Shown: in pieces, positions 16,544 to 40,764 of the stretch
Layout of the letters: the number at the start of each line of letters is the position of its first letter
Position numbering within the stretch: the stretch's first letter is position 1
Source: Curtobacterium sp. A7_M15
GTDB lineage: Bacteria; Actinomycetota; Actinomycetes; Actinomycetales; Microbacteriaceae
Length of the DNA stretch: 45,911 nucleotides
Direction of reading: 5' to 3'
Assembly (NCBI RefSeq): GCF_030705415.1
Contig: NZ_JAUZED010000016.1
Coordinates: 1-45,911, forward strand
The notes under the pieces: model-generated
What the model saw: the letters and a program-made list of their open reading frames with translations, nothing else
What the model was told of the DNA's origin: nothing
Database searches by the model: none
Made by a program: the position numbers and the translations under genes

Positions 16544-18199
16544 ATGACCGACACGACCACCAGCGGCCTCAGCCGACGCACACTCCTCTCCGGCGCCGCC
16601 TTCGGCCTCGTCGCCATCGGTGCGACGGGCGGACTGACCGGCTGCTCGACCGGCGGCACCGCCGCGACCATCTCCGACACGGTGGCCGCACTGCCGACGT
16701 ACGTGCCGATCATGAAGGGCCCGAAACCCGACCTGCCGGGCAACGACGTCGTGCAGCCCGTGTACTACACCTACCCGCAGGACAGCGAGCTCTTCACCTC
16801 GGTGAGCGGGAAGGTCGCCGACGGATCGAAGACCTCGGGGTTCGTCGTCACCTACACGGCGCCACCGCCCGCCGACAACTCGTTCCTCGACTACATCGGC
16901 GGCCTGACGAACACCGAGTACGACCTGACGTTCGTCCCCGGCGACTCGTTCGACACGAAGTTCGCCACCATGACCGCGGGGAACGACATCCCGGACATCG
17001 TCGAGTTCCTGACCTTCGCGATGCCGCCGCGCTTCCCGCAGCTGCTCGACGCGAAGTTCTCGGACCTGTCGGAGTACCTGTCGGGTGACGCCGTGAAGGA
17101 CTACCCGAACCTCGCGAACATCCCCACCGCGTCGTGGCGGAGCGCCCGCATCAACGGGAAGATCTACGGCGTCCCGGAGCACCGCCCGCCCTTCGGATCG
17201 GTGATGGTCTGTCGGCCTGACCTCATCGAACAGCTCACCGGTGCAGCCCCCGCGCCGAAGGACAAGGACGAGTTCACCGAGCTGTGCAAAGCCGTCACCG
17301 ACACCAAGGCCGGCCGCTACGCGATCGCCGGCGGTGGCGGGTCGAGCGGCGTCGACTGGTCCTACGACTTCATCGGCGCGGCCTTCGGCGTCCCGAACCA
17401 GTGGAAGCAGTCCGCCGGCGGGAAGCTCACGCACAAGAACGAGACCGACGCCTGGCTCGAGACGCTCTCGTACATCAAGAAGCTCTGGAACCTCGGCATC
17501 TACCACCCGGACACGCCGAGCCTCGAGAGCGCCAAGGCGAAGACGTACATCAACAACGGCACTGTGCTGATGCACCTCGACGGGATCTCCGCGTTGCTCG
17601 ACGTCACGATGCCGAAGGGGATCGTGACCGGCGGCATCGTGCCGTTCGGCGCCGACGGTGGGAAGGGCGCGAACTACCAGGGCTCGTCGAGCTTCTCGTT
17701 CGCCGCGCTGAAGAAGACGACCCCGGCGAAGATCCGCTCCCAGCTCCGGTTGCTGGACTACCTGTCGGCACCGTTCGGTTCGCGAGAGGCCTTCACCCTC
17801 ACGCACGGCAAGAAGAACGTGCACTTCACCGGCAGCGGGCCCGACGCGGTGCTGACGAAGAGCGGCGAGCAGCTGATCAACGCCAGCTCCCTCTACCGAC
17901 TCGCCGCGGGCCCGCAGGTGCTCAACACCGCGGTGCGCATCGACGAGCAGCTCCGTCAGTCGCACAAGTGGCAGGTCGCGACCCAGGACATGCTCCTCAA
18001 GAACCCGGTCGACGGCTTCTACTCCCCCTCGGCGACGTCCACGCAGTCCGCCAACCAGGCGTTCAACAGCGTCTGCAACGACTACGTACTCGGTCGGACG
18101 AACCTCGCCGCCGTCAAGGCCGGCGTGACGACGTGGACCGCGGCCGCTGGCGACAAGATGCGCAAGGAGTACACGGAAGCGATGGAGAAGCAGGGCTGA
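16544..18199 (+). CDS. Extracellular solute-binding lipoprotein of the oligosaccharide importer
   Basis: A 551-residue binding protein, the long type paired with LplB/LplC permeases. The N-terminus has a twin-arginine motif (LSRRTLLSG), a hydrophobic stretch and the lipobox LTGC (Cys34), so it is probably a Tat-exported lipoprotein. The mature part holds YDLTFVPGDSFDTKFATMTAGNDIPDI, and further on GKIYGVPEHRPPFGSVMVCR, both typical of this family. ATG 16544 follows AAGGGAG. The gene is 49 bases after the second permease and closes the operon. Confidence 0.92.
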   Translation: MTDTTTSGLSRRTLLSGAAFGLVAIGATGGLTGCSTGGTAATISDTVAALPTYVPIMKGPKPDLPGNDVVQPVYYTYPQDSELFTSVSGKVADGSKTSGFVVTYTAPPPADNSFLDYIGGLTNTEYDLTFVPGDSFDTKFATMTAGNDIPDIVEFLTFAMPPRFPQLLDAKFSDLSEYLSGDAVKDYPNLANIPTASWRSARINGKIYGVPEHRPPFGSVMVCRPDLIEQLTGAAPAPKDKDEFTELCKAVTDTKAGRYAIAGGGGSSGVDWSYDFIGAAFGVPNQWKQSAGGKLTHKNETDAWLETLSYIKKLWNLGIYHPDTPSLESAKAKTYINNGTVLMHLDGISALLDVTMPKGIVTGGIVPFGADGGKGANYQGSSSFSFAALKKTTPAKIRSQLRLLDYLSAPFGSREAFTLTHGKKNVHFTGSGPDAVLTKSGEQLINASSLYRLAAGPQVLNTAVRIDEQLRQSHKWQVATQDMLLKNPVDGFYSPSATSTQSANQAFNSVCNDYVLGRTNLAAVKAGVTTWTAAAGDKMRKEYTEAMEKQG

Positions 18200-21176: not shown

Positions 21177-21342
21177 CCACGATCTGACGGTCGCAGTGCG
21201 GGACGGGAAGCGGGGGGGCCGCGGGGCGCCCCCCCCCCCCCGGGGGGGGCCCCGGCCACCGCCGGGCAGCCATTAGGCGGAACCCCCCCGCGGGGGGGCC
21301 CGCCTCGGGGCCTCACCACGATCTGTCGGCCGCTGGGCGGGC
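21177..21342. other. Abnormal poly-C/poly-G stretch with partial duplication; probable assembly artefact
   Basis: After the GH16 stop, 33 bases from 21176 are repeated imperfectly at 21315-21347 (both begin accacgatctg). Between them lie 13 C followed by 8 G, further runs of seven G or C, and mirror-like GC-only sequence, unlike anything else here. The second copy runs straight into a strong GC hairpin at 21343. The pattern suggests polymerase or assembly failure at the hairpin rather than biology. Confidence 0.55.
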
Positions 21343-21378
21343 CGGGAGGCGCGGTGCCAGCGGGCACCGCGCCTCCCG
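21343..21378. terminator. Hairpin terminator after the GH16 gene
   Basis: A perfect 16-bp stem (21343-21358 and 21363-21378) with the 4-base loop agcg. The stem core gggaggcgcgg recurs in the terminators at 33256 and 39702, so the same hairpin type is used three times in this window. Confidence 0.8.
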
Positions 21379-21470
21379 TCGTGTGGTCCCGCGTCCACGG
21401 CGGTGCATCCTTTCGGAGGAACCCCGCGGAGTGCGTCCCTTCGCCGGTCGTCCGGCGGCACCGCCGTTCG

Positions 21471-29868: not shown

Positions 29869-30178
29869 GCGCGCCCTCCCTCACGTCGATGTCCCCGAAC
29901 ACTAGCGGCGCTCGATCGTCCGCACAGCACCGTGAACGGGGGCCGTGCTGAGACGCACCGTCGAGTTGCGGAGGAATTGCCCACCGGGCTCCGGGCGTTT
30001 CGAGGGCGTCTGCTCGCCGCTTCGTCGGACTACGATCCCCGAAGAGGTCGTCGTGCACGGCCGAAGCGGGTATTGCCGACGGACGCACCCGAGGTCCGGC
30101 GCGCGGTTGAGTCCCCGCGAGCGCTGCGGCAACCTACTGTACGAGCGGCCTCTGCTCGATCGAGGCATGGCCCGCTGG
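29869..30178. other. Intergenic region downstream of the MFS gene
   Basis: These 310 bases contain the promoter of the membrane-protein gene near 29899-29904. The rest carries no supported gene: the open frames lack ribosome sites and have Arg/Pro/Ser-rich composition expected of non-coding high-GC DNA. It could be decayed coding sequence next to the lower-GC MFS region. Confidence 0.4.
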
Positions 30179-31462
30179 TCAGCGTTGGCCAGGGAGCTTC
30201 CCCACGGCGCGGCGTGTACCGATGACGAGGATCACGCTGGCGAGTCCCATGACCGCTGCGGCCGTCGCGATGGCTGCCGGGAAGCCGGTCGTCGCTGCGT
30301 CGAGGGGATCGAGCGCGCTGAGAACGTTCGAGGTCACTGTCGTGGCAACGAGCGACGAGATGGCGAGGACCGGAGCTGTCAATGATGACACGCGTCCCAT
30401 TGCTCCCGATGGAACCTCGGCTTGCAGGATCGGCCCTTGCGCGACTATGTACACGGAGAAGAGCAGTCCTGCAAGCAGCATCAGACCCGCGGCGGGGACG
30501 AATGAACGCACCGCGGCGTACGCGACGTACGTCACCGCCATCGAGAGCAAGGCGAGAGCGAGTGCACGCTCGGCCCGGAGGCGACGGACGACCGTGGGCG
30601 CAGCGAAGGAACCGACGAGTCCACCCACGGAGAACATTGCGGAAACGATGCCGTACTGCTCCGTGGAGAGCTGGGCAGTCTTCAGTGCGAAGAGGGACAG
30701 CGTTGCGTTGTTGACTCCGAGTGACAGCCCGTACGCAGACATCCCGACGAGAAGGAGCCGAAGTCGTCGCGACTGCCAAGCGATGAGGATGCCAGAGCTG
30801 AGTTCGCGCCAGTAGCGTTCCCGAGCCACCGAGCTGTGCACTCGTCGCTCGCGGACCAACGCGACGAGCGTGGCAGACACAACGAACGATGCCGCGTCGA
30901 TGACGAGCGCCGGACGGGGGCCGACCGCACTGAAGAGCGCCGGCCCCGCCATCGTCGCGATGATCCCGGCGCCCATGCTGGAGAACGTCGACCGCCCCGC
31001 TGCCCCTGCACGTAGATCAGTCGGGACGACCGCCTGGATCAGAGCACTCCTCGCCGGATCGAAGAATTGCGATGCCGTGCTGACGAGCAGCTGCATGACG
31101 ATGAGCGCCAGCGGGAACGCCGCTGCGGGGAGCACTGTCGTTGCGGCGAGCAGGGGCACGTACAGCGCCGCCCTGACGAGGTCCGCCGAGAGCATGACGG
31201 TGCGCGCCGCCCACCGGTCGACGAGCACCCCGGCGAACGGGGCGAGCACGATCCGCGGCAGCGCTGCTGCCGCTACGACTGCCCCGATGTAGATCGGGAG
31301 CTGCGAGTCCGTCGCAGCGAGCGTCGTTGCGAGCCAGACCGTCACCGTCGATGCCATCACGTACTCGCCGAACGACGAGAGCGCTTGCGCACTCCACAGC
31401 AAACCGAACGATCGGTTGATGAAAAGCTTCGCGGCGCGCGGCGCGGGTGCTGTCGTCGTCAC
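30179..31462 (-). CDS. MFS transporter (EntS/MefA-like exporter group)
   Basis: Drug or siderophore efflux permease of the major facilitator superfamily, 427 residues with about 12 hydrophobic segments. The start NRSFGLLWSAQALSSFGEYV and the loop-2 motif APFAGVLVDRWAARTVM are typical of the MFS_3 group (enterobactin exporter EntS, macrolide efflux MefA). FFDPARSALIQAVVP and a GIVSAMFSVGGLVGSF segment in the second half also fit. GTG 31462 is preferred over the upstream GTG 31558, which would add a Gly/Pro/His-rich leader; GTG 31462 overlaps the stop of a 27-codon ORF. Base composition is lower than in the neighbours (38 G/C in 30301-30360), consistent with acquisition. The exported compound is unknown. 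Confidence 0.88.
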   Translation of the reverse strand: MTTTAPAPRAAKLFINRSFGLLWSAQALSSFGEYVMASTVTVWLATTLAATDSQLPIYIGAVVAAAALPRIVLAPFAGVLVDRWAARTVMLSADLVRAALYVPLLAATTVLPAAAFPLALIVMQLLVSTASQFFDPARSALIQAVVPTDLRAGAAGRSTFSSMGAGIIATMAGPALFSAVGPRPALVIDAASFVVSATLVALVRERRVHSSVARERYWRELSSGILIAWQSRRLRLLLVGMSAYGLSLGVNNATLSLFALKTAQLSTEQYGIVSAMFSVGGLVGSFAAPTVVRRLRAERALALALLSMAVTYVAYAAVRSFVPAAGLMLLAGLLFSVYIVAQGPILQAEVPSGAMGRVSSLTAPVLAISSLVATTVTSNVLSALDPLDAATTGFPAAIATAAAVMGLASVILVIGTRRAVGKLPGQR

Positions 31463-31542
31463 CGTGATGGGCGGGCCAAGCGGATCGCGTACAACGCAGA
31501 GATGTGCTCGGGGAACCGGAACATGGCCGCTGCGGTGCTCAT
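31459..31542 (-). CDS. Putative 27-residue leader ORF coupled to the MFS gene
   Basis: ATG 31542 is preceded by a G-rich possible ribosome site and opens a 27-codon frame (begins MSTAAAMFRFPEHI, ends RLARPSR). Its TGA overlaps the GTG of the MFS gene by 4 bases, the same geometry as coupled genes elsewhere in this window. It may be a leader peptide that couples or attenuates translation of the exporter, as known for macrolide efflux and methylase genes. It could also be chance. Confidence 0.3.
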   Translation of the reverse strand: MSTAAAMFRFPEHISALYAIRLARPSR

Positions 31543-31567
31543 CACCCCCCGGCCCCACTGCATTCGG

Positions 31568-31675
31568 TCAGATGTGAACCGGCTTCGATGCCAGGACGTG
31601 ATCCGACGGAAGCGCCTGCGTCTGCAGGTTGCACGTGCTCTCCTGCAGGAGAGCCGCCTTGACAGTTGATTCCAT
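31568..31675 (-). CDS. Putative 35-residue peptide upstream of the MFS gene
   Basis: ATG 31675 follows GGGGAA and opens a 35-codon frame: MESTVKAALLQE at the start, STCNLQTQALPS in the middle with the only Cys, and SKPVHI at the end. Composition is unlike the Arg/Pro-rich shadow frames of this window. It could be a leader peptide or a small precursor peptide exported by the MFS protein; no modification enzyme is encoded nearby. A perfect 18-bp palindrome lies within it. Confidence 0.35.
   Translation of the reverse strand: MESTVKAALLQESTCNLQTQALPSDHVLASKPVHI
31637..31654. promoter_or_regulatory. Perfect 18-bp palindrome upstream of the MFS gene
   Basis: gctctcctgcaggagagc equals its own reverse complement over all 18 bases. 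It could be an operator for a dimeric repressor or, in RNA, a hairpin within the short ORF. No local repressor gene is present. Confidence 0.45.
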
Positions 31676-32017
31676 GATTTCCCCAATCTCAGCAATCAAT
31701 GCACCTCGCGGCTGCGACGTTGCACTTCGCAACGTATTTCCGTTACCGCGAACAGCGCAAGGTCCTCCAGCGAGCATGAGTTGACTCTCAGATTCAGGGT
31801 GGACGCCAGGGCAACTACGTGACTCTCTAGCGCGAACGACGTTCAGCGCACGGACCCACTCGCCCCGACTTCGCGACGCCTGCTGTGGTCGAGTCGCGCG
31901 TCCTCGGCTATCTCCGTGCTGGTCGCACGTCCGCCTCGCACAACGCAACGGGGTGAGCAGCGCAGGAAAGTCGCGAACGTCGTCGATCGGTGCTGCGACC
32001 CCTGAGAGAGTCACCTC
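31676..32017. other. Lower-GC divergent region between the MFS leader ORFs and the GNAT gene
   Basis: A 342-base stretch with visibly lower GC (33 of 60 bases at 31681-31740). It holds the inverted repeat at 31717-31735, a palindrome gaacgacgttc near 31833, and near 32007 GAGAGT ending 6 bases before ATG 32018. No supported long gene lies here; the long minus-strand frame through it is a shadow. Confidence 0.5.
31717..31735. promoter_or_regulatory. Inverted repeat operator candidate for the MFS unit
   Basis: acgttgc (31717-31723) and gcaacgt (31729-31735) form a perfect dyad around acttc, 42 bases upstream of the 35-codon ORF on the minus strand. Its size and symmetry fit a TetR- or MarR-type site. 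Confidence 0.4.
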
Positions 32018-32698
32018 ATGACGTCGGAGTGGAACGGGGCAGACGCTGCGCACCGGTACGGGGCGACACTGCTCGAAGGCGACCTCGTTCGGTTCCGCGC
32101 GTTGGAGGACGCGGACCTGCCCGACCTGGTGCGGTGGTGGCGCGACCCGGAGTGGGCGGTGCTCCAGCAGATCATCGTCCGTCCACGCCCAGCGGATTCG
32201 GTCGTCGAGATGTTCCGCAGCTGGAGCAAGAGCGACGGGAGCGGCGAGGTCGGGTTCAGCGTCGTCGACCGCATGTCGGGCACGCTCGTCGGCCACGTGA
32301 CGCTCTTCGGCGCGAAGCTCCCGGTCCGGGCCGCGACCCTGGCCGTCATGATCGGCAGCGAGCACGTGGGACAGGGGTTCGGCACGGACGCGGTCCGACT
32401 CCTCACGGACTACGGGTTCCGCGAGATGGGACTGAACCGCATCGAGATCCAGGTGCACGCGTTCAACGACCGAGCGCGCGCCGTCTACGCCAAGACCGGC
32501 TACCGCGTCGAGGGCGTGCGCCGCGAGGCGACCTTCCACGACGGGCGCTTCCACGACGAGGTCATCATGTCCGCACTGGCCCGCGACTGGTCGAGCAGAT
32601 CGACCGGCGCCACGCCCGAGCCACCGGACGCGGCCGTGCGAGGATCGAGCCGTGGGGGAAACGAGAGTGTTGCGGGCGGACGTGCCCGAGGCCGCTGA
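32018..32698 (+). CDS. GNAT family N-acetyltransferase (RimJ/RimL-like)
   Basis: Acetyl-CoA-dependent acetyltransferase of 226 residues. It opens with LEGDLVRFRALEDADLPDLVRWWRDPEW, typical of the Acetyltransf_3 group, and has VGHVTLFGAKLPVRAATLAVMIG, the CoA pyrophosphate loop GQGFGTDAVRLL and the closing NRIEIQVHAFNDRARAVYAKTGYRVEGVRREA. The last ~30 residues after ALARDW are a disordered Ser/Pro/Arg tail that overlaps the next gene by 47 bases. ATG 32018 is the start. The acetylated substrate is unknown. Confidence 0.9.
   Translation: MTSEWNGADAAHRYGATLLEGDLVRFRALEDADLPDLVRWWRDPEWAVLQQIIVRPRPADSVVEMFRSWSKSDGSGEVGFSVVDRMSGTLVGHVTLFGAKLPVRAATLAVMIGSEHVGQGFGTDAVRLLTDYGFREMGLNRIEIQVHAFNDRARAVYAKTGYRVEGVRREATFHDGRFHDEVIMSALARDWSSRSTGATPEPPDAAVRGSSRGGNESVAGGRARGR
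32640..32645 (+). promoter_or_regulatory. -10-like element before the second GNAT gene
   Basis: GAGGAT ends 6 bases before GTG 32652, the leaderless spacing found elsewhere here. It lies within the 3' end of the first GNAT gene. Confidence 0.3.
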
Positions 32699-33239
32699 AC
32701 TCGAAGCGCAGGGCTGGAACGTCACCGCACGATCGTTCGGCGCCCAGCTCGACGCCGACCGGGTCGACCGCCAGCGGCTGCAGGCGCTCGTGGACCGCAC
32801 CGCTGACATCGGCGTGACGGGGCCGCTCGGGCCCGACGACGTCGACGCCGTCCTCCGGCTCGACGCCCTGACGGCCGACCACTACCCCGGCGGCATCGCG
32901 ACCCAGCACGAGCCACTCGACCGCGGGGCGGCGACCCCGACGCCGGCACGGCGCGCGTTCGGCACCGTCACACCGGACGGCGAGCTCGTCGCGATGACCT
33001 TCGTCGACACGGACGGCCCCCATGCCGAGACCCACTTCACGGTCGTGCACCCCGCGCTGCGCGGTCGCGGGCTCGGGCAGGCAGTCAAGGCCGCGTCGGT
33101 CCTCGCCCTCGTGACGTCCGGCACCACCCGCTTCCGTACCGGCGGGTCGGCCGACAACTCCGCGATCGCGGCGGCGAACGCCGCCCTCGGGTACGTCCGC
33201 GACGAGGAGTGGGTGACGCTCGAAGCGCGCCGACGGTGA
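32652..33239 (+). CDS. GNAT family N-acetyltransferase
   Basis: A 195-residue GNAT protein, different from its upstream neighbour and closer to the two-domain mycothiol-synthase-like half-repeats. The N-terminal third is variable; the core has AFGTVTPDGELVAMTFVDTD, HFTVVHPALRGRGLGQAVKAASVLAL (CoA loop RGRGLG near residues 137-142) and NSAIAAANAALGYVRDEEW. The start is GTG 32652. The 3' end lies in a 144-bp sequence that is repeated, with the last 18 codons recognisable, at 39629. So this is the complete copy and the distal one a fragment. Substrate unknown. Confidence 0.85.
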   Translation: MGETRVLRADVPEAAELEAQGWNVTARSFGAQLDADRVDRQRLQALVDRTADIGVTGPLGPDDVDAVLRLDALTADHYPGGIATQHEPLDRGAATPTPARRAFGTVTPDGELVAMTFVDTDGPHAETHFTVVHPALRGRGLGQAVKAASVLALVTSGTTRFRTGGSADNSAIAAANAALGYVRDEEWVTLEARRR

Positions 33240-33326
33240 GGACGTGCGCGTCATCGGACGGGAGGCGCGGGCCGGGCCCGCACCGCGCCTCCCGTCCGTG
33301 ACACCAACCGCTGGGTGACGGCGCCG
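33183..33326. repeat. 144-bp direct repeat, copy A (left boundary of the 6.3-kb block)
   Basis: Aligned without gaps to 39629-39772, it differs at 11 positions by hand count. It comprises the last 18 codons of the GNAT gene, the terminator hairpin, and on the other strand a decayed 3' end of the LD-carboxypeptidase gene (ends TQRLV but with the stop lost). Confidence 0.9.
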
Positions 33327-33604
33327 CTCGCCGACCGCGCCCGAAGGCAGGAGCTGAGCGCCCCGCGGGAGACGGTGCGTTCCTGCGCATCGGTCGTGCA
33401 GATTCCCACGAGCAGCCGCGCCGACGCGTGCCTAGAGTCTGAATCGTTCCCGCTCTCAGCGAAGGAAATCGGCGGCATTGCGATCTCTGCTGCTCTGCCG
33501 TGCATTCCCGTCTCATCCGTCACTTTGCGTGTCATGACCCCACGAACCCGGTACCAGCGGGAATGTCGGGGCGATTCTCGGCGCGCGGAAAACGAAAGGT
33601 CACC
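33240..33604. other. Non-coding stretch: terminator, repeat end and upstream region of the SDR gene
   Basis: After the hairpin and the carboxypeptidase remnant come about 280 bases that hold no supported gene. They form the left edge of the inserted block and the promoter region of the SDR-malic enzyme-fumarase genes. No clear -35/-10 pair stands out. GAAAGG (33594-33599) is the ribosome site of the SDR gene. Confidence 0.5.
33256..33297. terminator. Hairpin terminator after the GNAT genes
   Basis: ggacgggaggcgcgg (33256-33270) pairs perfectly with ccgcgcctcccgtcc (33283-33297) over 15 bp, with a 12-base GC-rich loop. The same hairpin is present in copy B at 39702 and a related one at 21343. 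Confidence 0.85.
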
Positions 33605-34492
33605 ATGTCACCGTCCAATTCGCTCAAGAAGGTCCTCATCACCGGCGCCGGCACCGGTTTCGGGCAGGAGGTCGCGTTCCGTCTGGCCGAGAAGGGCTTC
33701 GACGTGCACGCGACCGTCGAGGTCTACGCACAGGTGCAGACCCTCAAGCGTCAGGCAGCCGAGCGCGGCGTGACGCTGCACGTCAGCAAGCTCGACGTCA
33801 CCGTCGAGGGCGACCGCCGCAAGGCCCTCGACTGGGGCATCGAGATCCTCGTCAACAACGCCGGCGTCGGTGAGGGTGGCGCGACCGTGGACATCCCCGA
33901 GTGGAACGTCCGCCACCAGTTCGAGGTCAACGTCACCGGCCCGCTCATGCTCACGCAGGGCATCGCGAAGCAGATGGCGAAGCGCGGCACCGGCCGCATC
34001 ATCTGGGTCTCGTCGCGTGAGGGCCTGAACGTCAACCCGTTCACGGGGATCTACTCGGCATCGAAGCACGCCGTCGAGGCGATCGCGGAGAGCATGAAGG
34101 ACGAACTCCAGGAGTTCGGCGTCGAGGTCGCGACGATGAACCCCGGTCCGTTCCTCACCGGCTTCAACGACCGGATCTTCCAGACCTGGGAAGGTTGGGA
34201 GGACGAGCCGGCGGAGCGTCTGTACGACTACTCGAAGCTCGCCTTCCCCCGGGCACAGTTCAACCCGGAGGCCGTCTACGCGACCCTCACCGCCCTCGCG
34301 GCCGGCGAGATCGACTCCTACCGGAACCTCGAGCCGAAGTCGATGATCGAGGAGACCAAGCAGCTCATCGAGGCGCCGTGGTCGAAGAAGACGACCGACG
34401 GTCTCGGCACCCGGAACGAGAACATCCAGAACGCCTTCGACATGCAGCCCGAGCAGCTCCGCGACGACCAGGACCCGATCCCCGCGCCGTGA
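33605..34492 (+). CDS. Short-chain dehydrogenase/reductase (SDR)
   Basis: NAD(P)-dependent oxidoreductase of 295 residues. Classical SDR motifs: TGAGTGFG (13-20), NNAG (84-87), catalytic Ser137 in VSSREG, and YSASK with Tyr150 and Lys154. PGPFLTGFND after the active site and an extended C-terminal tail (to EQLRDDQDPIPAP) are present. ATG 33605 has GAAAGG five bases before it; an upstream in-frame ATG has no ribosome site. First gene of the block with malic enzyme and fumarase, so a hydroxy-/keto-acid substrate is possible, but this is context only. A hairpin (34500) separates it from the malic enzyme. Confidence 0.9.
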   Translation: MSPSNSLKKVLITGAGTGFGQEVAFRLAEKGFDVHATVEVYAQVQTLKRQAAERGVTLHVSKLDVTVEGDRRKALDWGIEILVNNAGVGEGGATVDIPEWNVRHQFEVNVTGPLMLTQGIAKQMAKRGTGRIIWVSSREGLNVNPFTGIYSASKHAVEAIAESMKDELQEFGVEVATMNPGPFLTGFNDRIFQTWEGWEDEPAERLYDYSKLAFPRAQFNPEAVYATLTALAAGEIDSYRNLEPKSMIEETKQLIEAPWSKKTTDGLGTRNENIQNAFDMQPEQLRDDQDPIPAP

Positions 34493-34499
34493 GCACCCC

Positions 34500-34530
34500 G
34501 TGGGCGCGGCACACGCGCGGCCGCGCCCAC
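34500..34530 (+). terminator. Hairpin between the SDR and malic enzyme genes
   Basis: gtgggcgcgg (34500-34509) pairs perfectly with ccgcgcccac (34521-34530) around an 11-base loop. Lying 8 bases after the SDR stop and 32 before the malic enzyme start, it may attenuate read-through or protect the upstream message. Confidence 0.55.
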
Positions 34531-34561
34531 ACCCCCGTCGACTCGACCGCAAAGGAACGTC

Positions 34562-36235
34562 GTGAGCATCTCCGACCCGAACACACACCTCCCCGTCCTC
34601 CGCGACCCGATCCGCAACCGCGGCACCGCCTTCTCGCACCAGGAGCGCGCAGACCTCGGCATCACCGGCCGACTCCCCGCCGCCGTCGAGACCCTCGACG
34701 AGCAGGCGGCTCGCTGTTGGGCGCAGCTGCAGCGCAAGTCCACCCCGCTCGAGCAGTACACGTACCTCGAACTGCTCCGAGACCGGAACGAGACGCTGTA
34801 CTTCCGCGTCCTCGGTGACCACCTGCGCGACCTCCTGCCCGTCGTCTACGACCCGACCGTCGGCGACGCCATCAAGGACTGGAGCAGGGACTACCGCGTC
34901 TCCCAGGCCGCGTACCTCTCCATCGACCGCATCGACGACATCGAGGCGACCCTGCAGTCCTTCGGGTACGGTCCCGACGACGTCGACCTGGTCGTCTGCA
35001 CCGACGCCGAGGAGATCCTCGGGATCGGCGACTGGGGCGTCAACGGCGTCGACATCTCCGTCGGCAAACTCGCCGTCTACACCGCCGCCGCCGGCATCGA
35101 CCCCGGCCGGGTCATCGCGGTCAGCCTCGACTGCGGGACGAACAACGCGGCCCTGCTGAACGACCCGGCGTACCTCGGCAACCGGCACGCACGCGTCGGC
35201 GGCGACCGCTACGACGACTTCATCCGCCAGTACGTCACCGTCGCCTCGGAGCTGTTCCCGAAGGCGCTGCTGCACTTCGAGGACTTCGGCCCGCAGAACG
35301 CCCGTCGGATCCTCGACGAGTACCGCGACAGCACCCGGATCTTCAACGACGACATGCAGGGCACCGGCGCCATCGTCGTCGCGAGCATCATCTCGGCGAT
35401 GCGTGTCACCGGGCAGACGTTCGCCGACCAACGCCTCGTCGTGTTCGGTGCGGGCACTGCCGGGACCGGGATGGCGGACCAGATCACCGCCGGCATGGTG
35501 CGAGACGGCCTGACCGAGGACGAAGCACGAGCCCGTGTCTGGCTCATCGACAAGCACGGCCTCGTCACCGACGACATGACCGACCTGCCGAACTACCAGG
35601 CCGCGTACGCCCGGCCCGCAGGCGAGGTCGCCGACTGGGATCGGAAGGACGACACGATCGACTTGCTCACCGTGGTGCGCCAGGTGCACCCGACCGTGCT
35701 CATCGGTACGTCGACGGTCCACGGCGCGTTCACGAAGGACGTCGTGGAGGCCCTCTGCGCCGGCGTCGACCGGCCGGTGCTGCTGCCGCTGTCCAACCCG
35801 ACCGAACGCATCGAGGTGATGCCGGAGGACGCGATCGCGTGGTCCGACGGCAAGGCGCTCGTCGCGGTCGGCATCCCGTCCGACTCGATCGAGCACGACG
35901 GGACCACCTTCACCATCGGGCAGGCGAACAACTCCTTGCTGTACCCAGGACTCGGTCTCGGCACCATCGTCTCCCGTGCCACGCACGTCACGGACGGCAT
36001 GCTGCTCGCTGCTGCCACCGCGATCGCCGACCAGGTCGACGCGACCGCGCTCGGTGCGTCGCTCCTGCCGCCGGTGGAGAACCTCCGCGCCTCGTCCGCC
36101 ATCGCCGCGTTCGCCGTCGTCCGAGCCGCCGCGGCCGACGGCGTCGCCACGGTCACGTTCGGCAGCGACTCGGAACTCACCCAGGCGGTCCAGGACGCGA
36201 TGTGGCAGCCCGACTACCCCAGCCAGGAGGGTTGA
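34562..36235 (+). CDS. NAD-dependent malic enzyme (large, MaeA/SfcA type)
   Basis: Converts malate to pyruvate and CO2 with NAD(P). The 557-residue length matches the large malic enzymes. Visible: TPLEQYTYLELLRDRNETLYFRVL, catalytic Tyr96 in VVYDPTVGDA (usual form YTPTVG), Lys169 in VDISVGKL (usual form PIGKL), metal ligands Glu240-Asp241 in HFEDFG and Asp264 in FNDDMQGTGA, and the dinucleotide loop GAGTAGTG from residue 297. Changes in the two motifs (Asp for Thr after Tyr, Ser-Val for Pro-Ile) mark a divergent branch. GTG 34562 follows AAAGGAA. Four bases separate it from fumarase, so malate made by fumarase could feed it directly. Confidence 0.92.
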   Translation: MSISDPNTHLPVLRDPIRNRGTAFSHQERADLGITGRLPAAVETLDEQAARCWAQLQRKSTPLEQYTYLELLRDRNETLYFRVLGDHLRDLLPVVYDPTVGDAIKDWSRDYRVSQAAYLSIDRIDDIEATLQSFGYGPDDVDLVVCTDAEEILGIGDWGVNGVDISVGKLAVYTAAAGIDPGRVIAVSLDCGTNNAALLNDPAYLGNRHARVGGDRYDDFIRQYVTVASELFPKALLHFEDFGPQNARRILDEYRDSTRIFNDDMQGTGAIVVASIISAMRVTGQTFADQRLVVFGAGTAGTGMADQITAGMVRDGLTEDEARARVWLIDKHGLVTDDMTDLPNYQAAYARPAGEVADWDRKDDTIDLLTVVRQVHPTVLIGTSTVHGAFTKDVVEALCAGVDRPVLLPLSNPTERIEVMPEDAIAWSDGKALVAVGIPSDSIEHDGTTFTIGQANNSLLYPGLGLGTIVSRATHVTDGMLLAAATAIADQVDATALGASLLPPVENLRASSAIAAFAVVRAAAADGVATVTFGSDSELTQAVQDAMWQPDYPSQEG

Positions 36236-36239
36236 GCAG

Positions 36240-37736
<1,497 letters not shown>

Positions 37737-37858
37737 CCGGCGGAGCCCGACCGCAACACCCGGGCAGCATGACCCATCGGGGGACACAGCTGTCGCACGG
37801 CGGGCTCCGTCCCAGCACGCCGACCGGCACGCCCACACCGAGCGATGAACTGCTCGAT

Positions 37859-37880
37859 GCGGGCGTGCGCGTGCCCGCGC
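37859..37880. terminator. Small hairpin in the gap between fumC and the LysR gene
   Basis: gcgggc pairs with gcccgc around gtgcgcgt, in the 175-base gap where the two genes converge. A longer-range dyad (cggagcccg 37741-37749 with cgggctccg 37800-37808) lies just upstream. Nothing else is seen in the gap. Confidence 0.4.
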
Positions 37881-37911
37881 GAGCGCCCGCCGGAGCGCGG
37901 TGGAGGAGCGG

Positions 37912-38859
37912 TCAGCCGGAGACGGTCGTCCCGGTGGTGCTCCTGTCGTTCGGCATCCACACGAGCTCGTCGCGCCGGTCGAGGACCTCCCGGTGCAGCG
38001 CCTCACGGATCGCTGCGATGGCCGGCCGGTGGATGGCTTCTCGGCGCATCACCATCGAGACCGGGACGCGGGGAAGCGTCACCGTCGCGTCGACGGGGCG
38101 GATACCGTCGACCGTCCCCGCCATGAACTTCGACAGCAAGCCGATACCGGTACCACCGCGCACGGCTGCGAGCTGAGCGAAGATGCTCGTCGAACTGAAT
38201 GCGAGGTCCGCTGTCTCGACGACCTCGGCGAGGTCGAGCTCGCGGATCTTCTGCAGTGCGTCGATGAAGTACACCAGGCGGTGGTCCTGCAGGTCGGCCA
38301 GTGTCGCCGGGTTGCCGTGGCGGGCGAAGTAGTCGTCGCTGCCGTAGAAATCGCTGTCGTACTCGCAGAGCCGTTCGAGGTGCAGCCGTGTCGCGGGCCG
38401 CCGCCCGGGAGTGATGGCGATGTCGAAGCTGTTGGCCTGCAACCCGAGTTCACGGGAGCCGGTGACGAGTTCGACGGACAGGTCGGGGTGCTCGCGCTGG
38501 ACGCGGCCCACTGCGGGCACCACGAACACCGTCCCGAAGCCCTCGGCGGCGGTGATGCGGACCATGCCGGACACGCTGCCGGGCTCGACGCCGGAAGCGT
38601 ACTGCGCGACGGACTCCACCGAGCGTTGCACCTCGCGTGCGTGTTCGAGGAGGTCCCTGCCGGCGTCGGTCAGCATCCACCCGTCGTCGCTCCGGCTGAT
38701 GATGCGGATGCCCAGCGCGTCCTCGAGCGCGTGCAGACGCCGTGACACGGTCGAGTGGTCGACACCCATCGCCCGGGCAGCGGTGGTGAGCCGCCCGGTC
38801 TCCGCGATCGCGGCGAGGTGTCGCAGGTCGTCGGACCTCAGGTCTCGGGCCTTCACCAT
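37912..38859 (-). CDS. LysR-family transcriptional regulator
   Basis: A 315-residue regulator. The N-terminal HTH (about 10-68) reads DLRHLAAIAETGRLTTAARAMGVDHSTVSRRLHALEDALGIRII, and a linker helix leads to a LysR substrate-binding domain (GMVRITAAEGFGTVFVVPAVGRV, LVTGSRELGLQANSFDIAITPGR, LAAVRGGTGIGLLSKFMAG). It belongs to the group with HST in the recognition helix. Converging on fumC and inside the same flanking repeats, it is the likely regulator of the SDR-malic enzyme-fumarase genes. ATG 38859 is the start. The inducer is unknown; a dicarboxylate would make sense. Confidence 0.9.
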   Translation of the reverse strand: MVKARDLRSDDLRHLAAIAETGRLTTAARAMGVDHSTVSRRLHALEDALGIRIISRSDDGWMLTDAGRDLLEHAREVQRSVESVAQYASGVEPGSVSGMVRITAAEGFGTVFVVPAVGRVQREHPDLSVELVTGSRELGLQANSFDIAITPGRRPATRLHLERLCEYDSDFYGSDDYFARHGNPATLADLQDHRLVYFIDALQKIRELDLAEVVETADLAFSSTSIFAQLAAVRGGTGIGLLSKFMAGTVDGIRPVDATVTLPRVPVSMVMRREAIHRPAIAAIREALHREVLDRRDELVWMPNDRSTTGTTVSG

Positions 38860-39069
38860 GCGGTGCTCCTGTCGGCGGTGGTGCTCTCGGTCGGGCGGAG
38901 GAGGATCTCGCCGTCGACGCCGCGGGCCCGCAGGGAGTGGGCTCGGGCGTCATCGTGAGGCGGCTTCACATCATCGCGTTGCTCGCCACGGGCGTCCAGC
39001 GGCACGGCGCAAGTGGGGACGGGCGCCACCCTCCCCCAGATGCGATGCCCCCCGGGGAGAGCGTCCGTG

Positions 39070-39477
39070 TCAGGGCTCGCGGAGGTCGGCGAGCTCGACC
39101 TGCTCACCGAACATCCCCCAGTCCGACTCGGGCGTCTCGTTGATCACGACGTAGACGGGGATGCCCGCGCCCAGGGACGCGTGCGTCCGGAGGATCTCGG
39201 TTGCCTCAGCGATCAGGTGCTTGCGGGCGCGGTCATCGAGACCTCCCTCCAGCGCGTACACCTCGAGGACGACCGTCGGTGACGGAGCGAGCGAACCGCC
39301 GCGGAACACGCTCTCCGTCTGGTACTCCGAGAACAGCACCCAAACGCCTTCGCGGACCTCCTTCCGTTCCGAGAGCTTCTCGCAGTCGATCCCGAGGTCC
39401 GTCAACGCAGACGCGATACCCCAACGGACGTGCGAGGGGAACGTCCCCTCCGTCGAGCGGACAAACATCTTCGGCAT
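39070..39477 (-). CDS. Tautomerase superfamily protein (MIF/4-OT-like, Pro-1)
   Basis: A 135-residue protein with Pro directly after the initiator Met (MPKMFVRSTEGTF), the catalytic N-terminal proline of the tautomerase superfamily. Two beta-alpha-beta units follow (GIASALTDLGIDCEKL; then TVVLEVYALEGGLDDRARKHLIAEATEILRTHASL and PVYVVINETPESDWGMFGEQV). The length matches the two-unit members (MSAD, cis-CaaD, MIF-like) rather than 62-residue 4-OT. The phrase V-I-N-E-T-P-E-S-D-W-G fits that group. ATG 39477 has AGGAGT six bases before it. It would catalyse keto-enol tautomerisation or decarboxylation of a keto acid; substrate unknown. It lies inside the repeat-flanked block, 210 bases upstream of the LysR gene. 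Confidence 0.82.
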   Translation of the reverse strand: MPKMFVRSTEGTFPSHVRWGIASALTDLGIDCEKLSERKEVREGVWVLFSEYQTESVFRGGSLAPSPTVVLEVYALEGGLDDRARKHLIAEATEILRTHASLGAGIPVYVVINETPESDWGMFGEQVELADLREP

Positions 39478-39612
39478 GACACTCCTGTTCGACGGTGGGT
39501 GGATCGCGGCGCGGATGGACTCCACGGGCTCCACCCGCAAACGCTACGAGTCCAGAGGTGCCCCGCGAAGCGGCAGTTCCCCACACCGGGCGTGCAGCGA
39601 TGCGCCGTCGAC

Positions 39613-39684
39613 GCGATCGCCCGGGCGAGCCCTCGGGTCCGTCCGCGACGAGGAGTGGGTGACGCCCGAAGCGCGCCGACGGTG
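39613..39684 (+). pseudogene. 3' remnant of the GNAT gene
   Basis: The last 18 codons read ALGSVRDEEWVTPEARRR and stop, against ALGYVRDEEWVTLEARRR in the intact gene ending at 33239. A weaker match (gcgatcgc ... ggcga) extends about 16 bases further upstream with a small gap. There is no start codon or CoA-binding loop, so it is a fragment left by duplication. Confidence 0.75.
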
Positions 39685-39772
39685 ACGACGTGCGCACCGT
39701 CGGACGGGAGGCGCGGGTCGGGCCCGCACCGCGCCTCCCGTCCGTCAGACCAACCGCTGGGTGATGGTGCCG
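39629..39772. repeat. 144-bp direct repeat, copy B (right boundary of the 6.3-kb block)
   Basis: This copy matches 33183-33326 at 133 of 144 positions, same orientation. It contains the GNAT remnant, the terminator and the true 3' end of the LD-carboxypeptidase gene with its stop at 39745. The two copies bracket SDR, malic enzyme, fumC, LysR and tautomerase genes. Confidence 0.9.
39702..39743. terminator. Hairpin terminator of the LD-carboxypeptidase operon
   Basis: ggacgggaggcgcgg (39702-39716) pairs with ccgcgcctcccgtcc (39729-39743), as in copy A. It ends 2 bases from the stop codon of the carboxypeptidase gene on the minus strand. Confidence 0.85.
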
Positions 39773-40764
39773 ACCGGTCCGTCGAGCACGACGTCGGCGA
39801 GCGCGCCGTTCACCAGCGGCATCTGTGGCGGCTGGTGGCCGGTGTCGAAGTCGAGGACCACGGGGATGCCGAGGTCGCCGAGGGCTCGGCGGACGGCGTC
39901 GTCCTGGTCCAGCCCGCGCACCGCAGCGCCCTCGGTGCGGCCGATGAGGACGCCGCTCGCGTCGTCGAACCAGCCCGCGAGCCGCAGGGAGGTGAGCATG
40001 CGGAGTGCGGTGACGGCGTTCGACTCCGCGACCTCGAGGTGCACGATGGTGCCCTCGGGTGCGTGCCGTCGCGCGAAATCGGGCACGTCTCCGTAGGGGG
40101 TCGCGGCGAGCAGTGACACCGTCTCGAGGCACCCGCCGATGAGGCGTCCGCGGATCGCGAGCTGGGACGCGCCGTCGAGGGTGCGCCAGCGCGTCGGGGT
40201 GTCGTAGGCGCCGTCGCGGTCGAGGACCTCGTCGGACCACGCACCCCAGGGGCGGCTGCGGCGACGCGGGGCGCTGCGTTGTTCGATCGTCCCGCCCGAT
40301 GGGAGCGCCGCGACGTCGGTCCACCGGGCGAACTCGGTGGGCAGCTCGTACGGCTCGTCCATGAGGTTCGCACCGTGCAGGGTCGCGAGGCCCGTCATCG
40401 TCGTGAGCGGCAGGAGCAGGGTCGAGATGTCGGACCAGCCGACGAACCAGGCGCGTGCGGCGGCGAGGGCGTGCCAGTCGATCGAGCCCACGAGCTCGAT
40501 CGCCAGCTCGCCGCCCCACGGCGGCAGGACCACGTCGGCGCTCCGGAAGGCGTCGTGCAGGTCGGCGACACGCTCGGAGGCGGTGGCGGGGACGAGCCCC
40601 GGCGTGCTGGCGTGCGGCCGGACGTGCACGGAGAGTCCCCCCGCCGTCAGGGCGTCCGCGCCGTCCTGCAGTCGGCGGTGCAGGCGTTCGGGGACGCCCA
40701 TCGACGGAGCCGGCACCTCGATGCGACCGCTGGCGACCAGGGGCCTCGGGTAGGTGATGGCCAC
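39745..40764 (-). CDS. S66 family peptidase (LD-carboxypeptidase/MccF-like)
   Basis: Serine peptidase of 339 residues. S66 enzymes cleave the LD bond of murein tetrapeptides or, as MccF, inactivate microcin-C-like nucleotide peptides. The family triad is visible: Ser111 in VGWSDIS, Glu244 in VHLEVAES and His310 in DFDTGHQPPQMPL; GGELAIELVGSIDW near 84-97 and GRTEGAAVRG also match. The start is GTG 40764, 5 bases after the stop of the small upstream gene; the frame continues upstream only as an antisense-like overlap. The substrate side (murein or antibiotic) cannot be decided. Confidence 0.9.
   Translation of the reverse strand: MAITYPRPLVASGRIEVPAPSMGVPERLHRRLQDGADALTAGGLSVHVRPHASTPGLVPATASERVADLHDAFRSADVVLPPWGGELAIELVGSIDWHALAAARAWFVGWSDISTLLLPLTTMTGLATLHGANLMDEPYELPTEFARWTDVAALPSGGTIEQRSAPRRRSRPWGAWSDEVLDRDGAYDTPTRWRTLDGASQLAIRGRLIGGCLETVSLLAATPYGDVPDFARRHAPEGTIVHLEVAESNAVTALRMLTSLRLAGWFDDASGVLIGRTEGAAVRGLDQDDAVRRALGDLGIPVVLDFDTGHQPPQMPLVNGALADVVLDGPVGTITQRLV

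What the first reader, a model, noticed from the sequence alone, without database searches (positions are those of the whole stretch)
33183..39772. A malic enzyme/fumarase gene block flanked by 144-bp direct repeats of a terminator junction
Copies at 33183-33326 and 39629-39772 match at 133 of 144 ungapped positions. Each holds the GNAT 3' end, a terminator hairpin and the carboxypeptidase 3' end. The GNAT gene is complete only on the left and the carboxypeptidase gene only on the right. This is what results if a ~6.3-kb unit entered a once-simple convergent junction GNAT-terminator-carboxypeptidase and duplicated it, as by single-crossover integration of a circle carrying that junction. No integrase or transposase is present, so terminator hairpins may act as landing sites.
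Basis: partly seen in the sequence, partly recalled or inferred. Interest (0 to 1): 0.78.

Follow-up and report, generated by a model that had tools for sequence, protein, structure and literature searches.

The report
Gene block between duplicated gene ends
A set of metabolic genes in a Curtobacterium chromosome appears to have been spliced in beside an acetyltransferase gene in a way that copied the join on both sides, and some related species show a similar scar at the same gene with different cargo, which hints at a repeated route of gene capture that needs no dedicated recombinase.

Summary
The repeat is real: window 33183-33326 and 39629-39772 match at 133 of 144 positions. GNAT is complete only on the left, the S66 carboxypeptidase only on the right. 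The genus is Curtobacterium. Of 11 differences, read against sister species G031, right-copy changes lie at or before 33240 and left-copy changes at or after 33250; the six in coding sequence hit the broken copy. Three states shared by both window copies look derived relative to relatives, so the duplication probably arose in this lineage. The malic enzyme has a strong match in 2 of 66 genus genomes, at different places. None of 66 shows the exact empty GNAT-S66 junction, but G031 has it duplicated around another gene. In G015 the same GNAT gene's 3' end is duplicated around defence-like genes, and G060 has that empty site. G014 has a third, worn copy. No tyrosine integrase lies near in 10 genomes. 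Best mechanism, inferred: single-crossover integration of a circularised fragment.

The parts
32652..33239 (+). GNAT2, complete acetyltransferase gene at the left edge
   Evidence: ORF and PF00583
33183..33326 (+). left copy of the junction repeat
33256..33297 (.). left 42-bp hairpin
33299..33326 (-). relic of the S66 3' end, stop codon changed
33605..34492 (+). cargo: SDR oxidoreductase
   Evidence: PF00106; NF006776 above cut-off
34562..36235 (+). cargo: malic enzyme (oxaloacetate-decarboxylating malate dehydrogenase type)
   Evidence: PF00390/PF03949; NF010052 above cut-off
36240..37736 (+). cargo: class II fumarase-like lyase
   Evidence: PF00206/PF10415; TIGR00979 646 bits, slightly below its cut-off of 665 (both run from 36249); start codon at 36240 read
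37912..38859 (-). cargo: LysR-type regulator
   Evidence: PF03466/PF00126
39070..39540 (-). cargo: tautomerase-like protein
   Evidence: PF01361
39612..39686 (+). relic of the GNAT2 3' end, with amino-acid-changing differences
39629..39772 (+). right copy of the junction repeat
39702..39743 (.). right 42-bp hairpin
39745..40761 (-). S66 LD-carboxypeptidase-like gene, complete, right edge
   Evidence: PF02016/PF17676
40770..41075 (-). small gene (101 aa, no Pfam match) that borders the GNAT2 hairpin in G009 and G065, which lack S66 there

Best explanation
The block SDR-malic enzyme-fumarase-LysR-tautomerase is an insert, probably gained horizontally, that landed at the 3' end of GNAT2 in an ancestral convergent junction GNAT2-hairpin-S66 and in doing so duplicated about 150 bp of that junction. 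The duplication, the intact outer genes and the broken inner copies are shown; that the ancestor had the bare junction is inferred. The GNAT2 3' end looks like a recurrent landing place in Curtobacterium: G015 carries a defence-like block and G014 a small block between an intact GNAT2 and a displaced GNAT2 3' fragment, and G031 carries a glyoxalase-family gene between two copies of the hairpin-S66 end. Most likely mechanism (inferred): a linear DNA fragment holding a short stretch of the junction plus cargo was closed into a circle, plausibly by the Ku/LigD end-joining system present in these genomes, and integrated by one crossover in the shared stretch. That gives a direct repeat of arbitrary length with no dedicated recombinase. 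In the window the crossover would lie between 33240 and 33250.
For: Repeat 133/144. All 11 differences polarised with G031: 3 of 3 up to 33240 are in the right copy, 8 of 8 from 33250 on are in the left copy; 6 of 6 in coding sequence are in the broken copy. Among 83 columns present in all four copies, 2 group the window copies against the G031 copies and 0 group left with left. Shared states of both window copies that look derived: 33191 and 33225 (G009 and G065 agree with G031) and 33307 (four of four distant S66 genes agree with G031). Malic enzyme strong in 2 of 66 genomes, elsewhere in G086. G031: same junction duplicated, 102 bp at 98%, different cargo. G015: 439 bp at 93%, 6062 bp apart, cargo with AAA_13 and AbiJ_NTD4, empty site in G060. 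G014: 131 bp at 78%, E 1e-25. Right copies start near GNAT2 codons 178, 75 and 148, so no fixed site. No PF00589 match near GNAT2 in 10 genomes; nearest 88 kb (G031) and 95 kb (G065). Ku in 65 of 66 genomes; LigD_N in 4 of 5 and the ComEC-type Competence family in 5 of 5 tested. Experimental precedent, duplications of 109-950 bp in 14 sequenced clones (PMC3240628).
Against: The exact empty junction GNAT2-hairpin-S66 is not seen in any of 66 genomes. A circle carrying part of the junction beside the cargo must be assumed; no such molecule or donor was looked for in plasmid or phage records. Staggered-break fill-in or a tandem duplication with cargo at its joint would give the same architecture. 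Four of the seven sites shared by the window copies against G031 are not clearly derived: at 33232 G009 and G065 carry the window state, 33224 and 33233 are mixed, and at 33321 the four distant S66 genes encode serine as G031 does but carry the window's base. In G015 polarity is noisy: 9 right, 6 left and 10 unresolved changes in the GNAT2 part, 5 of 5 left in the flank. G031's repeat holds no GNAT2 coding sequence. 21 of 24 GNAT2 loci show no displaced GNAT2 fragment. A role for Ku/LigD rests on presence only; the Competence family is also found in E. coli (control), so it says little about transformation.
Confidence: 0.5

Rival explanations
1. A double-strand break with long staggered ends at the junction was filled in and a foreign fragment was ligated between the ends by end joining, so the junction was copied on both sides in one step.
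For: Needs no circle and no junction on the donor; Ku and LigD present in G000, G015, G014 and G031; end points differ between cases.
Against: Overhangs of 144-439 nt are long. Changes in noncoding sequence also switch cleanly from right to left copy at 33240-33250, which a crossover predicts; with five noncoding sites this is weak.
Confidence: 0.25
2. A site-specific element integrated at the 3' end of GNAT2, restored the gene, and later lost its integrase.
For: Intact gene on one side and displaced 3' fragment on the other is the usual look of islands at gene 3' ends (recalled general knowledge).
Against: The duplicated stretches are 131-439 bp and start at different codons; in the window and G015 they run past the stop into the end of the next gene; no tyrosine integrase near GNAT2 in 10 genomes. 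Serine integrases were not searched genome-wide.
Confidence: 0.1
3. The junction was first duplicated in tandem and the cargo was inserted or exchanged between the two copies later; in G031 and the window this could be one old duplication kept alike by gene conversion.
For: Both sister species have it, and such widely spaced repeats are rare elsewhere.
Against: Site patterns group copies within each species (2 sites) and never by side (0 sites) among 83 columns. The G031 pair is 98% alike, the window pair 92%. The right copies differ in extent.
Confidence: 0.12
4. The 42-bp hairpins themselves attract insertions, for example by breaking during replication.
For: Both the window and G031 repeats contain the hairpin; hairpin junctions have more indels overall, 7 of 27 against 19 of 247, p = 0.007, and among same-strand pairs, 4 of 13 against 9 of 169, p = 0.008. 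In the background, near-tandem repeats in G065 (327 bp apart) and G087 (440 bp apart) also hold hairpins in both copies.
Against: Borderline among spacers of at least 40 bp (p = 0.053), not significant at 80 bp (p = 0.22), 120 bp (p = 0.41) or among convergent pairs (p = 0.54); the G015 and G014 repeats contain no such hairpin; of 134 hairpins in 1.93 Mb only the two at the G031 GNAT2 locus bound a repeat more than 800 bp apart.
Confidence: 0.08

Closest known systems
Single-crossover (Campbell-type) integration of a partly degraded, probably re-circularised molecule in E. coli conjugation (PMC3240628, passages seen)
   Same: Direct duplication of part of the homologous locus (109-950 bp in 14 sequenced clones) around the integrated DNA; no site-specific recombinase.
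   Different: A laboratory plasmid in E. coli; here natural inserts in Curtobacterium, the circle is not observed, and the broken copies have decayed.
Minimal mobile element (named in passages of PMC2649163; the original papers recalled, not seen)
   Same: Different gene cassettes at one site between conserved genes in related strains, without mobility genes.
   Different: Exchange there is by homology in both flanks (recalled); here the junction is duplicated, so one-sided or circular entry is needed.
Homology-facilitated illegitimate recombination (PMC3240628 passages; original papers seen only as references)
   Same: Short homology at one end with an illegitimate joint at the other.
   Different: It generally deletes recipient DNA of similar size, whereas here recipient DNA is duplicated.
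Genomic island at a gene 3' end (recalled)
   Same: Intact gene on one side, displaced 3' fragment on the other, accessory cargo.
   Different: No tyrosine integrase found, no fixed core site, long and variable repeats that run into the next gene in the window and G015.

Membership tests
Single-crossover (Campbell-type) integration | direct repeat of the homologous stretch flanks the whole insert | tested here: met
   144 bp at 133/144; 439 bp in G015
Single-crossover (Campbell-type) integration | differences between copies switch side at one crossover point | tested here: met
   window: right-copy changes at or before 33240, left-copy changes at or after 33250; decay alone would give most of this too. 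G015 is not clear-cut: 9 right and 6 left changes before the stop, 5 left after it
Single-crossover (Campbell-type) integration | a circular donor carrying the same stretch | not tested
   no plasmid or phage collection was searched for it
Integrase-driven genomic island | integrase gene in or next to the element | tested here: not met
   for the window block, no PF00589 match near GNAT2 in 10 genomes; serine integrases not searched genome-wide
Integrase-driven genomic island | fixed attachment core | tested here: not met
   right copies start near codons 75, 148 and 178 of GNAT2
Transposon or IS insertion | transposase gene in the block | tested here: not met
   no transposase domain among the scanned proteins
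Transposon or IS insertion | short target duplication (recalled: a few to about a dozen bp) | tested here: not met
   repeat of 144 bp
Minimal mobile element | alternative gene content between conserved flanking genes | tested here: met
   interval from GNAT2 to the small 101-aa gene: hairpin only in G009 and G065, glyoxalase-family gene plus S66 in G031, block plus S66 in the window
Minimal mobile element | exchange by homologous recombination in both flanks | tested here: inconclusive
   the duplicated junction argues against a simple two-flank exchange
REP element mobilised by a Y1 (RAYT-type) transposase, for the hairpin family | Y1 transposase in the genome | tested here: not met
   PF01797 in 0 of 66 genomes

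The most novel reading that the evidence does not exclude
G060, the only one of 66 genomes without a Ku match and also without LigD_N, keeps the empty site that G015 has filled.
Probability: 0.2. Interest if true: 0.7.

Novelty: new variant of a known kind. Interest (0 to 1): 0.45.

Why it matters
Here the scars can be read: intact outer genes, decaying inner copies, variable end points, and one empty site in a related species. If the reading holds, they are natural examples of insertion without a dedicated recombinase at one gene, and they make it testable whether end joining contributes to horizontal gene transfer in a genus with Ku and LigD.

Tried and rejected
Hairpins as insertion hot spots: tested on G031 against G065 over about 337 kb of collinear alignment. 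Significant overall (p = 0.007) and among same-strand pairs (p = 0.008), borderline for spacers of at least 40 bp (p = 0.053), not for spacers of at least 80 or 120 bp, convergent or divergent pairs; left as not established. Hairpins moved by a Y1 transposase: none in 66 genomes. Rfam families in the window at gathering scores: none. Standard terminator scan, which asks for a T run: neither hairpin was called. A malic enzyme donor in the family: 150 genomes drawn; besides the window's own genome only one match at E 1e-100 or better, 46% identical. G086's copy of the block: no repeat of the kind in an 18-kb stretch. Literature on palindromic terminators in Curtobacterium: two searches, listings only, showed nothing relevant; this does not show that none exists. 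Searches on end joining, mobile elements, merodiploids and Curtobacterium pangenomes gave listings; of these only passages of PMC3240628, PMC3784515 and PMC2649163 were read.

Counting notes. The Fisher test (2 of 24 other GNAT2 loci against 0 of about 1,490 genes, p = 0.0002) counted one locus twice (L055 and L162 lie on the same 194,101-bp contig at the same place); the true number is 23, which leaves p about the same. It rests on the 800-bp spacing limit chosen after seeing the data. Only the G015 hit has GNAT2 coding sequence in the repeat; with that alone p = 0.016. The G000, G060 and G087 background stretches were picked partly because hairpin or Ku matches were known on them. The 2.40 Mb contain overlaps between loci of the same genomes and one Kytococcus locus; the nine loci were tested only for GNAT2 fragments. 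G014's repeat (78%) is below the threshold of that scan. Two distant GNAT2 relatives (G059, G068, about 40% identity) and a second G009 fragment were not examined; G009's GNAT2 match itself begins at residue 35 and has an in-frame stop. G060 offers only 1.7 kb downstream before its contig ends, so a distant fragment there cannot be excluded. Gene calls in the scripts are a simple composition rule, not a gene finder.
Full report
What was checked. The repeat exists as described: 33183-33326 and 39629-39772, 133 of 144 positions, with gapped similarity from 39612. Each copy holds a GNAT 3' end, a 42-bp hairpin and the end of the convergent S66 gene. GNAT2 (32652-33239) is complete only on the left and S66 (39745-40761, minus) only on the right. 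Between them lie SDR, malic enzyme, class II fumarase-like lyase, LysR regulator and a tautomerase-like gene. No integrase or transposase domain was found among the scanned proteins.

Where it is. Of 66 genus genomes, 6 have a strong S66 match (8 with weak ones included), 35 have some GNAT2 match, and 2 have a strong malic enzyme match, besides two stray matches near E 0.001. In G086 the SDR-malic enzyme-fumarase cluster with its LysR gene sits on another contig than GNAT2.

States of the locus. G009 and G065 have GNAT2, hairpin and then the small 101-aa gene, with no S66 and no block; G009's GNAT2 match starts at residue 35 and has an in-frame stop. G031, the closest relative seen, has GNAT2, hairpin, a fragment of the S66 3' end, a glyoxalase-family gene, a second hairpin and intact S66. 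Its repeat is 102 bp at 98%. So the same junction is duplicated in two species around different cargo. None of the 66 genomes was found with GNAT2-hairpin-S66 and no insert.

Age and origin. Among 83 columns present in all four copies, 71 are invariant, 8 differ only in the window's left copy, 2 group the two window copies against the two G031 copies, 1 is unique to each G031 copy, and none groups left with left. On the GNAT2 side five sites are shared by both window copies against G031 and three differ only in the right copy. Polarity was checked with relatives. The window state looks derived at 33191 and 33225 (G009 and G065 agree with G031) and at 33307 (four of four distant S66 genes agree with G031). 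At 33232 the relatives carry the window state, 33224 and 33233 are mixed, and at 33321 the four S66 genes encode serine like G031 but carry the window's base. So the duplication most simply dates to the window's lineage and G031's is a separate event; gene conversion is the alternative. Right-copy changes end at 33240 and left-copy changes begin at 33250. All six in coding sequence lie in the broken copy. Decay of the dead halves explains this, and so does a crossover with a slightly different donor at 33240-33250.

The wider pattern. A scan of 2.40 Mb (with overlaps) for direct repeats of at least 70 bp and 84%, at least 300 bp apart and within 40-kb pieces, gave three more than 800 bp apart: the window, G031 and G015, all at GNAT2. 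About 0.47 Mb of that sequence had been chosen for GNAT2, S66, the malic enzyme or the finding; in the other 1.93 Mb (1,491 called genes, 134 hairpins) only the G031 locus scored. The 800-bp limit was set after the fact; closer, near-tandem repeats occur in G031, G065, G000 and G087, and those at G065 (327 bp apart) and G087 (440 bp apart, 347 bp at 100%) hold hairpins in both copies. In G015 the stretch from GNAT2 codon 75 to 57 bp past the stop (439 bp, 93%) recurs 6062 bp downstream. Between the copies lie ASCH, Imm8, an unassigned protein, an AAA_13 ATPase (PADLOC PDC-S06) and an AbiJ_NTD4 protein (PDC-S32). The left copy ends in a broken start of the next small gene; the right copy leads into that gene intact. 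G060 has GNAT2 followed directly by that gene: the empty site. Differences between the G015 copies, read against the rather distant G060, are 9 right, 6 left and 10 unresolved in the GNAT2 part and 5 left in the flank. G014 has a worn 131-bp GNAT2 3' fragment (78%) 2.4 kb downstream of GNAT2, past a methyltransferase and a BLUF protein. In all, 3 of 24 distinct GNAT2 loci have a displaced GNAT2 3' fragment, and G031 has the related S66-side scar. No PF00589 integrase lies near GNAT2 in 10 genomes; serine integrases were not searched genome-wide.

Mechanism. Variable end points, repeats that run past the stop codon (window and G015) and the lack of a recombinase argue against site-specific integration. 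The architecture equals a tandem duplication with cargo at the new joint. A published case fits: in E. coli conjugation, 56 of 60 Lac-minus recombinants gave the PCR product of a duplication, 14 sequenced clones had 109-950 bp of the homologous locus duplicated, and the authors favour single crossover of a molecule that had been linearised, degraded and re-circularised (PMC3240628, passages). Small duplications without flanking repeats are also reported in pneumococcal transformation (PMC3784515, passages). Ku is found in 65 of 66 genus genomes, LigD_N in G000, G015, G014 and G031 but not G060, the Competence family in all five tested, though also in E. coli. End joining could close such circles, but this is inference from gene presence. 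Staggered-break fill-in remains a close rival.

Hairpins. Hairpin junctions show gene-content indels in 7 of 27 cases, other junctions in 19 of 247 (p = 0.007); same-strand pairs 4 of 13 against 9 of 169 (p = 0.008); spacers of at least 40 bp 6 of 25 against 13 of 134 (p = 0.053); at least 80 bp 5 of 24 against 12 of 97 (p = 0.22); at least 120 bp 4 of 20 against 12 of 79 (p = 0.41); convergent pairs 2 of 11 against 5 of 35 (p = 0.54); divergent pairs 1 of 3 against 5 of 43 (p = 0.35). The result is mixed and does not establish a hot spot. The repeats in G015 and G014 do not contain the hairpin; in G015 a loose match lies about 190 bp beyond the right copy, and G060 has one 289 bp past the GNAT2 stop. 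The hairpin is nevertheless notable: 52 copies in 800 kb of G031 against 1 with reversed arms, 49 of the 52 exactly 42 bp long; with a looser pattern 66 against 6, of which 59 of the 66 are 41-43 bp long. Of the 52 copies 22 lie between convergent gene ends, against 119 of 601 neighbouring gene pairs. Exact-arm copies occur in 9 of 10 genus genomes (4 to 169) and in none of 388 genomes of other genera of the family.

Verdict. Insertion with junction duplication is well supported; single-crossover entry is the best of several mechanisms; hairpins as landing sites are not established. The wider finding is a recurrent insertion scar, without a recombinase that I could find, at the 3' end of one acetyltransferase gene.

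Noticed in passing
window 33256-33297, 39702-39743, one more relaxed match, probably near 21340-21380; also across the genus: A 42-bp near-perfect palindrome (arms GGACGGGAGGC...GCCTCCCGTCC, inner halves variable) is dispersed in Curtobacterium: 52-59 copies in 800 kb of G031, often just after gene ends and between convergent genes. Exact-arm copies were in 9 of 10 genus genomes (4-169 each) and in none of 388 genomes of other genera of the family.
   Followed up: partly
G060 whole genome: The only one of 66 genus genomes without a Ku match, also without LigD_N, has the most exact hairpin copies (169) of the ten genus genomes counted.
   Followed up: no
L046:5537-10439: A defence-like block (Imm8, AAA_13 / PDC-S06, AbiJ_NTD4 / PDC-S32) sits between two copies of the GNAT2 3' end in G015.
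   Followed up: partly
window 29945-32620: The stretch upstream of GNAT2 is also variable: it holds a 459-aa ORF and a second GNAT gene here, but a different 195-aa gene in G031.
   Followed up: no
L032:5257-11222: G086 carries the SDR-malic enzyme-fumarase cluster (84% DNA identity over 4.1 kb) with its LysR gene (76%) at another place, with an extra 217-aa gene between fumarase and LysR.
   Followed up: partly
G031 about 179280-179750 and G065 stretch about 214420-215000: Short repeats of about 95-155 bp, near-tandem, beside or around hairpins, at corresponding places in both species.
   Followed up: no
G087:C1 about 17017-17803: A 347-bp direct repeat at 100% identity, 440 bp apart, with a hairpin in each copy.
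   Followed up: no
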